49,530 nt of DNA, taken from contig JASJDA010000064.1 in assembly GCA_030065755.1 (NCBI GenBank), forward strand, positions 1 through 49,530. Reading direction: 5' to 3'. The notes below the pieces were generated by a model. That model worked only from the letters and a program-made list of their open reading frames with translations, had not been told where the DNA came from and made no database searches. The position numbers and the translations under genes are program-made. Below, piece by piece: positions 47,727 to 49,530 of this stretch (positions are counted from its first letter, which is position 1; every line of letters begins with the position of its first letter). This stretch comes from Prochloraceae cyanobacterium (GTDB taxonomy: Bacteria > Cyanobacteriota > Cyanobacteriia > Cyanobacteriales > JASJDA01).

Positions 47727-48461
47727 TTAGTTTATTTTTAAAGTACTAGGAAATAGTACAGAATCTTCTGATTCTTTTTCTTCATATATATCTTTGAGTG
47801 CAGTTTCTAAATCCGCTGTCAGTTTTTTGGAACTTTTACGTAGAGAATCGCTGCTATATTTAGCAACATTTAAAGGGGAACCAATTTTGACGCGAACTTT
47901 AGTACCCCAACTGGGATAGGGATCGCTGTATTTAAGGCTAATGGGTAAAATTTTCACTTCCATGCCTGGTTTTTGAGATTCTGCTTCTAGAGCGATACTA
48001 GCCACACCTCGCTTGAGAGGATGGATCTTATTATCTCTAAAAACTTCTCCTTGAGCCCCAGGAGCGCCTTCTGGAAAAATTACTTGCATTTTATTTGCAA
48101 GCAATAGTTCGATGCTGTGGCGCATACTACTAATACTCGGACGTTTAGGGTCAACAGGAAATCCTCCCAGTCTTTTGATAAACCAACCTTGAATAGGTTT
48201 ACTGTATTCGTCGATAGTGACCATAAAGTGAAGATCTCTTCCGCTTGTTAGCCTACCTGCAGCATAAGCTAATATAAACCCATCCCAATAAGAACGATGA
48301 GTGGGAGCTAAAATTAAAGGATCGGTTTTAGGAATATTTTCTCGCCCACTTACCTCTATGCGACCGAAATAAAGTGGCAAGAGAAGGTAGCAAAATAAGG
48401 GATAGAGAATAGTGGACAACCAAAATGAAACTCTAGAACTAATGGTGTTTTTTTCTTTCAT
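47727..48461 (-). CDS. plsC: 1-acyl-sn-glycerol-3-phosphate acyltransferase (PlsC family)
   Basis: A 244-residue acyltransferase that adds the second acyl chain to lysophosphatidate. The catalytic HX4D motif is H55-RSYW-D60, and FPEG (in VIFPEGAPGAQGEVF) is the glycerol-phosphate-binding block. An N-terminal hydrophobic stretch (about 12-31) anchors it to the membrane. The preceding gene on the same strand, tadA, is 211 bp away and probably separate. Cyanobacteria carry several PlsC paralogs; the exact acyl preference cannot be told. Confidence 0.87.
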   Translation of the reverse strand: MKEKNTISSRVSFWLSTILYPLFCYLLLPLYFGRIEVSGRENIPKTDPLILAPTHRSYWDGFILAYAAGRLTSGRDLHFMVTIDEYSKPIQGWFIKRLGGFPVDPKRPSISSMRHSIELLLANKMQVIFPEGAPGAQGEVFRDNKIHPLKRGVASIALEAESQKPGMEVKILPISLKYSDPYPSWGTKVRVKIGSPLNVAKYSSDSLRKSSKKLTADLETALKDIYEEKESEDSVLFPSTLKIN

Positions 48462-48671: not shown

Positions 48672-49172
48672 TTATTTCTCTCGTCGCTTTTTAAACCAAG
48701 ATTGTAACTGAACTCTAGCACTAGATTCCATAATTCCCCCTAGAACTAGCAATCTATGATTGGACGCGGCACTATCTGGGATATTGACAGCTGTGCGAAT
48801 TGCTCCCGTTTTAGGATCGTCTGCTCCATATACTAGCAGACCGATGCGAGCTTGTACAATTGCTCCAGCACACATCGGACAAGGTTCTAAGGTCGCGTAG
48901 AGACTGCAGCCGTCAAGATGCCAAGAATTCATGGCTTTGCCTGCCGCGCGCAGTGCTAGAATTTCAGCGTGAGCAGTAGGGTCGCGATCGCGCTCTTTGC
49001 GATTAGAGGCAAAGCTAACTAGATTATTGGCGCGATCGACCACTACAGCACCTACGGGTACGTCTCCTGCATCTCCTGCTTCTGCTGCAAGTTGCAAAGC
49101 CAAATTCATCCACTGTTTGTGAATTAGATAAGCAGTTTCATCTATTTGTAATATAGATATTTTTTTGACCAA
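48672..49172 (-). CDS. tadA: tRNA-specific adenosine deaminase
   Basis: A 166-residue zinc deaminase that converts A34 of tRNA-Arg(ACG) to inosine. Zinc and catalytic residues are H68-A-E70 (TAHAEILAL) and C98-P-M-C101 (PCPMCAGA). RKERDRDPTAHAE is the usual tRNA-loop contact. The TTG start at 49172 is taken because the residues before M22 (DETAYLIHKQW) fit the family; M22 is the alternative. It starts 4 bp after the glutaredoxin stop on the same strand, so the two genes are likely in one operon. Confidence 0.95.
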   Translation of the reverse strand: MVKKISILQIDETAYLIHKQWMNLALQLAAEAGDAGDVPVGAVVVDRANNLVSFASNRKERDRDPTAHAEILALRAAGKAMNSWHLDGCSLYATLEPCPMCAGAIVQARIGLLVYGADDPKTGAIRTAVNIPDSAASNHRLLVLGGIMESSARVQLQSWFKKRREK

Positions 49173-49176
49173 AGTT

Positions 49177-49407
49177 TTAGGTAGCTGGCTGTGCTAAAAG
49201 GGGGTCTAATTGACCTTTTGCGTCCAAGCTGTGTATTTCGTCACAACCGCCTACGTGCCGATCGTTAATAAAAATCTGCGGTACGGTACGCTTTCCGTTG
49301 GCGCGGACAGCCATTTGATTTCTAGCTTCTTTATCGCCATCGATTTTATATTCGGTGTAATTTACTCCTTTCCACCACAGAAGTAATTTGGCGCGGATGC
49401 AGTAAGG
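49177..49407 (-). CDS. grxC: Glutaredoxin, 3' exon (gene interrupted by a group II intron)
   Basis: Seventy-six codons plus stop. The reading frame starts exactly at PYC, i.e. the last three residues of the CPYC active site (codons CCT TAC TGC, 49399-49407), and continues IRAKLLLWWKGVNYTEYKID, then RTVPQIFINDRHVGGCDEIH and a C-terminal PLLAQPAT. TVPQIFI and GGCDEI are the glutathione-binding parts of glutaredoxin 3. The 5' part, with the first active-site Cys, should lie upstream of the intron beyond the right edge. Correct splicing is needed for a functional enzyme, since the intron interrupts the redox motif. Downstream tadA follows closely. Confidence 0.88.
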   Translation of the reverse strand, partial: PYCIRAKLLLWWKGVNYTEYKIDGDKEARNQMAVRANGKRTVPQIFINDRHVGGCDEIHSLDAKGQLDPLLAQPAT

Positions 49408-49530
49408 ATTAAACTAAGCCAGAGAGTCACCTCTCCGACTCGTCTTCAAAACCGTACGTGAGACTTTCACCTCATACGGCTCCTCAGAAACATGACTTTT
49501 GTCACAAGCACTAATCAAAACAGGGGTGTC
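49408..49530 (-). mobile_element. 3' end of a group II intron (domains V and VI), continues past the window
   Basis: On the minus strand, domain V reads GAGCCGTATGAGGTGAAAGT then CTCACGTACGGTT (49450-49482), with the AGC catalytic triad, the GAAA-type tetraloop and matching arms. Domain VI follows (GACGAGTCGGAGAGG...CTCTCTGGCTTAGTTTAAT), ending in AT at 49408, the AY 3' splice boundary. This is the bacterial/chloroplast-like class of intron. Its reverse transcriptase gene and 5' end would lie further right. Confidence 0.9.

What the first reader, a model, noticed from the sequence alone, without database searches (positions are those of the whole stretch)
49177..49530. Group II intron inserted inside the CPYC active-site codons of glutaredoxin
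The intron's domain V and VI are clearly present on the minus strand, and the exon resumes at CCT TAC TGC (PYC). Bacterial group II introns usually sit outside essential genes; here the enzyme can only be made if the intron splices accurately. It might link glutaredoxin output to splicing conditions.
Basis: seen in the sequence. Interest (0 to 1): 0.75.

Follow-up and report, generated by a model that had tools for sequence, protein, structure and literature searches.

The report
Mobile intron splitting a glutaredoxin gene
The end of this contig is the tail of a common self-splicing mobile intron sitting in the active-site codons of a glutaredoxin gene of a cyanobacterium; sister copies in the same genome split several other ordinary genes, so it is probably spliced out and harmless, although the front half of this gene is missing from the assembly.

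Summary
The window is a whole contig (C420) of a 455-contig cyanobacterial draft and ends 123 nt inside a group II intron (minus strand). Domains V and VI are intact and the 3' exon resumes in frame at CCT TAC TGC. Fourteen other copies in the genome share this 3' end, which places the boundary between the Cys and Pro codons of CPYC. The gene is uninterrupted in all 80 relatives examined. The 5' exon was not found, so an intact insertion is inferred, not shown. The inference is reasonable: seven copies are contiguous and full-length (2.7-2.9 kb) and two more pair across contigs; five of these nine interrupt conserved genes in frame (fabG, rtcB, GH1, LptA-like, DUF7219). None of 40 sampled contigs is shorter than 5,105 bp, so short pieces were probably dropped. 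The 3' exon shows protein-level constraint. Against it: four sister copies are 5'-truncated, and one cannot tell from 123 nt which class this copy belongs to. An intact paralogous glutaredoxin exists, so the enzyme is not unique, and nothing supports regulation by splicing. Gene-interrupting group II introns are documented in cyanobacteria. New member of a known kind.

The parts
49408..49530 (-). 3' terminal 123 nt of a group II intron (cut by the contig end at 49530)
   Evidence: matches positions 2646-2768 of a model of 7 full-length sister copies, E 1.2e-39; 96.7% identical to the copy on C396
49449..49482 (-). intron domain V
   Evidence: RF00029 and RF04357; pairing on 15 copies
49411..49445 (-). 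intron domain VI; unpaired A at 49415, 8 nt from the intron 3' end, is the predicted branch point
   Evidence: fold; compensatory changes in 5 of 15 pairs; branch-point assignment is inference from position
49414..49530 (-). C-terminal tail of the intron-encoded protein frame, 38 codons then TAG (49416-49414)
   Evidence: frame continuous with the maturase ORF of sister copies
49177..49407 (-). 3' exon of glutaredoxin (GrxC type), PYCIRAKLLLWW...LLAQPAT*, 76 aa and stop
   Evidence: PF00462, TIGR02181, conserved in relatives
48672..49172 (-). tadA-like gene downstream (context)
   Evidence: NF008113 145.3 bits, just under its cut-off of 150; tadA follows grx in 11 of 22 relatives read
47727..48461 (-). 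1-acylglycerol-3-phosphate acyltransferase-like gene (context)
   Evidence: TIGR00530 39.4 bits, below its cut-off of 102.95; a like gene follows in 8 of 22 relatives read

Best explanation
A splice-competent copy of a recently active, retro-mobile group II intron family (RT-maturase-HNH type) inserted into the glutaredoxin gene between the codons for Cys and Pro of CPYC. After transcription the intron RNA, helped by its own maturase or one made from a sister copy, is removed and the exons are joined, giving a normal glutaredoxin. The contig stops inside the repeated intron, and the piece carrying the 5' exon was lost from the draft, probably because pieces under about 5 kb were dropped. Shown: the intron 3' end, its intact D5/D6, the exact boundary, the intact 3' exon, the sister copies and the genes they split. 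Inferred: that this copy is complete upstream, that the 5' exon lies directly before it, and that it splices.
For: D5/D6 intact with all 29 pairs standard in this copy and the 3' end identical to 14 sister copies. Uninterrupted gene reading ...IYTWxxC|P(Y/F)C in 80 of 80 loci examined (best 80 of 564). Seven contiguous full-length sisters; fabG restored from C204+C416 and rtcB from C222+C239, GH1, LptD_N and DUF7219 domains span the junction when exons are joined. Contigs of other copies break inside the same intron with exact 114- and 138-nt overlaps. Shortest of 40 contigs sampled is 5,105 bp. 3' exon departs from none of 39 columns conserved at 95% or more.
Against: The 5' exon was not found by a 28-aa protein search, a 27-nt exon pattern with 2 mismatches, an exon-plus-intron pattern or among 15 intron 5' ends read, although the 5' exons of fabG and rtcB were found. 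Four sister copies are 5'-truncated at model positions 2385, 2537, 2596 and 2654, and this contig ends at 2646, so a truncated copy would look the same here. No RNA data. 3 of 7 full-length copies have a broken maturase frame.
Confidence: 0.72

Rival explanations
1. The copy is 5'-truncated or otherwise dead, the 5' exon is gone, and the 3' exon is a remnant; the paralogous glutaredoxin on C346 does the work.
For: 5' exon absent from the assembly; four truncated sisters (C278, C217, C129, C176); intact paralog.
Against: Three truncated copies tested are followed by short frames (29, 53 and 57 aa) with no Pfam match, the fourth was not tested, whereas here the whole 76-aa C-terminus is intact and conserved. 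A very recent loss would leave it intact too, so this is not decisive.
Confidence: 0.2
2. The junction is an assembly chimera, or the insertion is present only in some chromosome copies or cells of the sampled population and an intact gene exists beside it.
For: Draft assembly broken at this repeat; polyploidy is proposed in print to shelter such insertions in cyanobacteria (PMC8919778, passage seen).
Against: The boundary falls exactly at the 3' end shared by 14 other copies and no uninterrupted copy of this gene was found in the genome.
Confidence: 0.05
3. The intron is a regulatory switch that ties glutaredoxin (and the other split genes) to conditions that govern splicing.
For: Several unrelated genes in one genome depend on the same intron family.
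Against: The insertion is confined to this genome among 80 loci examined; the split genes share no pathway; nothing measures splicing.
Confidence: 0.03

Closest known systems
Group II introns of Thermosynechococcus elongatus (TeI4h and relatives; PMC2882425, passages seen)
   Same: Proliferated family in a cyanobacterium with ORF-bearing copies; maturase aligns over residues 20-605 with the solved chain 6me0_C, E 4.5e-85 (that this chain is TeI4h is recalled, not from a call).
   Different: Most T. elongatus copies are intergenic according to the paper; here at least five of nine full-length copies split conserved coding genes in frame.
Gene-interrupting group II introns of Trichodesmium erythraeum (PMC4649490, abstract and Discussion read)
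   Same: Introns in conserved protein-coding genes of a cyanobacterium; the paper cites 17 group II introns shown to splice in vivo.
   Different: Ten of those 17 lack an ORF; here the gene-splitting copies are the ORF-bearing type. Host gene here is glutaredoxin.

Membership tests
Group II intron | Domain V hairpin with catalytic AGC and GNRA loop | tested here: met
   RF00029 60.1 bits over 1-77; AGC and GAAA present and pairs kept
Group II intron | Domain VI with bulged adenosine 7-8 nt from the 3' splice site, intron ending AY | tested here: met
   unpaired A at 49415, 8th from the end, intron ends AT
Group II intron | 5' end GUGYG and domains I-IV | not testable with these tools
   contig ends; present in 7 full-length sister copies as GTGCG
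Mobile group II intron (RT-maturase encoding) | RT, maturase (X) and endonuclease domains | tested here: inconclusive
   only a 38-codon tail of the frame is in the window; sister on C115 has RVT_1, RVT_N, GIIM and HNH
Group II intron interrupting a coding gene | both exons present and in frame | tested here: inconclusive
   3' exon met; 5' exon not found in the assembly
Group II intron interrupting a coding gene | splicing in the cell | not testable with these tools
   needs RNA
Glutaredoxin 3 (GrxC) | CPYC active site and thioredoxin-fold C-terminal half | tested here: inconclusive
   PYC and the rest over TIGR02181 cut-off; the first Cys lies in the missing exon

The most novel reading that the evidence does not exclude
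One mobile, maturase-bearing intron family has settled in frame in many unrelated working genes of a single bacterium (fabG, rtcB, glutaredoxin, GH1, LptA-like), often inside the most conserved motif, so that the cell depends on a shared splicing activity and expression of all these genes rises and falls together with maturase supply.
Probability: 0.05. Interest if true: 0.65.

Novelty: new member of a known kind. Interest (0 to 1): 0.3.

Why it matters
It adds a glutaredoxin case, and with it a genome in which ORF-bearing group II introns sit in frame inside several conserved genes, to the short list of cyanobacteria where bacterial genes behave like organelle genes. Such a genome is a natural place to ask how far a bacterium can tolerate intron dependence. 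The single glutaredoxin insertion by itself changes little, since a paralog exists and the 5' half was not seen.

Tried and rejected
5' exon searches: 28-aa N-terminus of the same-genus relative, three matches up to E 10, the best (E 0.197) being the C346 paralog; intron 5'-end pattern, 14 sites, none after a glutaredoxin exon, but the pattern is not exhaustive since it missed the C222 end, which has one change; exon-plus-intron pattern with 3 mismatches, 0 sites; exon pattern with 2 mismatches, 7 sites, one the paralog and six that are not glutaredoxin when read (the backwards control gave 5). Synteny: in four relatives and in the same-genus genome a glpX-like gene lies upstream of grx; in this genome it is on C65, where no grx exon or intron was found in the first 20,000 of 34,320 bases.

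dN/dS: dN to the 14 nearest sequences is 0.07-0.17, dS is saturated or not estimable, so no ratio is given; 67 of 80 loci were kept for this test, the rest dropped for length or an in-frame stop in the 225 bases taken. This copy has 2 private residues (others mean 1.2, maximum 5) and ranks 47 of 69 in mean distance, so it is neither unusually conserved nor relaxed.

EBS/IBS pairing by a crude scan gave no clear EBS1 and was dropped. One search used wrong coordinates and found only itself. One search failed on a coordinate. Literature: eight searches; in the listings for group II intron with glutaredoxin (19 papers), with rtcB (13) and with fabG and cyanobacteri (1) no title or abstract start describes such an insertion; those papers were not opened.

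Full report
What is there. The window is the whole of contig C420 of a draft genome of 8,455,803 bases in 455 contigs. Its nearest relatives by the glutaredoxin exon are cyanobacteria, apart from one metagenome bin labelled Chloroflexaceae. The last 123 bases, read on the minus strand, are the 3' end of a group II intron: Rfam RF00029 matches 49408-49484 with 60.1 bits, domain V and domain VI fold as expected with an unpaired A eight bases from the end, and the exon follows at once as CCT TAC TGC. The exon encodes the last 76 residues of a glutaredoxin 3.

Where the boundary is. The genome holds 14 further copies of the same 3' end, all ending CTTAGTTTAAT and then diverging. On these 15 copies the D5/D6 structure is kept in 99.5% of cells, with compensatory changes concentrated in domain VI (two of the five measures do not exceed shuffles). 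The boundary therefore lies between the codons for Cys and Pro. In 80 of 80 relatives examined (the best 80 of 564) the gene reads without interruption through C-P-(Y/F)-C, and the only same-genus genome at hand is also uninterrupted. The insertion is thus private to this genome in the material seen.

What the intron is. Seven copies are contiguous from GTGCG to TTTAAT, 2,738 to 2,925 bases. The copy on C115 encodes a protein with RVT_N, RVT_1, GIIM and HNH domains, which aligns over residues 20-605 with the solved maturase chain 6me0_C. Four of the seven have a reading frame of at least 681 residues; in the other three the longest frame is 526, 604 and 535 residues, so their maturase is broken. 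Four further copies are truncated at the 5' side and one on C397 is cut by other sequence. A copy on C252 lacks the ORF region.

What its sisters do. Joining the flanks of sister copies gives open frames that run through the junction. Domains span it in a GH1 glycosidase (C286), an LptA/LptD-N protein (C115), a DUF7219 protein (C218) and FabG (C204 with C416). RtcB is split inside MPDVHQGYG|MPIGG, with profile positions 1-29 on C222 and 27-426 on C239. A sixth frame (C85) is open but has no Pfam match, and for C396, C249 and C82 no interrupted gene was recognised. So five of nine full-length copies sit in frame in recognisable genes. This is the main support for reading the glutaredoxin copy as a working intron.

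Why the 5' exon is missing. It was not found by protein, pattern or intron-end searches, and the glpX-like gene that neighbours grx in some relatives lies elsewhere. Contigs of other copies also stop inside the intron, with exact overlaps of 114 and 138 bases between C204 and two partners. Of 40 contigs taken at near-even steps, the shortest is 5,105 bases, which suggests a length cut of about 5 kb; in the same-genus genome transposon-like genes lie directly upstream of grx, so a short piece between two repeats is plausible here. Against this, the 5' exons of fabG and rtcB were recovered, and the contig ends at a point (model position 2646) close to where truncated copies begin (2596, 2654). 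The 123 bases cannot tell a full copy from a truncated one.

What follows for function. The 3' exon departs from none of 39 columns conserved at 95% or more among 68 other sequences, which argues against an old remnant but not against a recent loss. The genome has an intact CPFC glutaredoxin on C346, and further glutaredoxin-domain proteins on C419, C349 and C411, so the gene is not the only source of the activity. Nothing bears on regulation by splicing.

Known or new. Group II introns in conserved genes are documented in Trichodesmium (PMC4649490, abstract and Discussion read), and proliferated families in Thermosynechococcus (PMC2882425, passages); a survey notes some that disrupt essential genes and proposes polyploidy as a shelter (PMC8919778, passages). 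Among 25 genomes searched here including this one, 18 carry group II domain V matches and this genome has 32. The finding is a new member of a known kind.

Noticed in passing
C222 end with C239 start (L196, L081); C204 end with C416 end (L102, L079): Sister introns split rtcB inside its MPDVHQGYG|MPIGG motif and fabG after APGFITT, both restored in frame by joining contigs.
   Followed up: partly
49414-49530 (-) and sister copies: The maturase frame stays open through domains V and VI and stops at a TAG whose A is the predicted branch point; open for at least 38 codons upstream in 10 of 15 copies.
   Followed up: partly
G017 (unnamed relative, one contig, 3.8 Mb): All 122 scored candidates for RF00029 are matches, a lower bound since 484 candidates were found: an extreme group II intron load.
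   Followed up: no
L068 4566-6289: Genes that look like an IS200/IS605-type pair (judged by eye) lie directly upstream of grx in the same-genus genome.
   Followed up: no
C113 19943 to contig end (L101): Another intron copy runs off a contig end after the 5' part of a HGSNAT-like gene; its 3' exon was not looked for.
   Followed up: no
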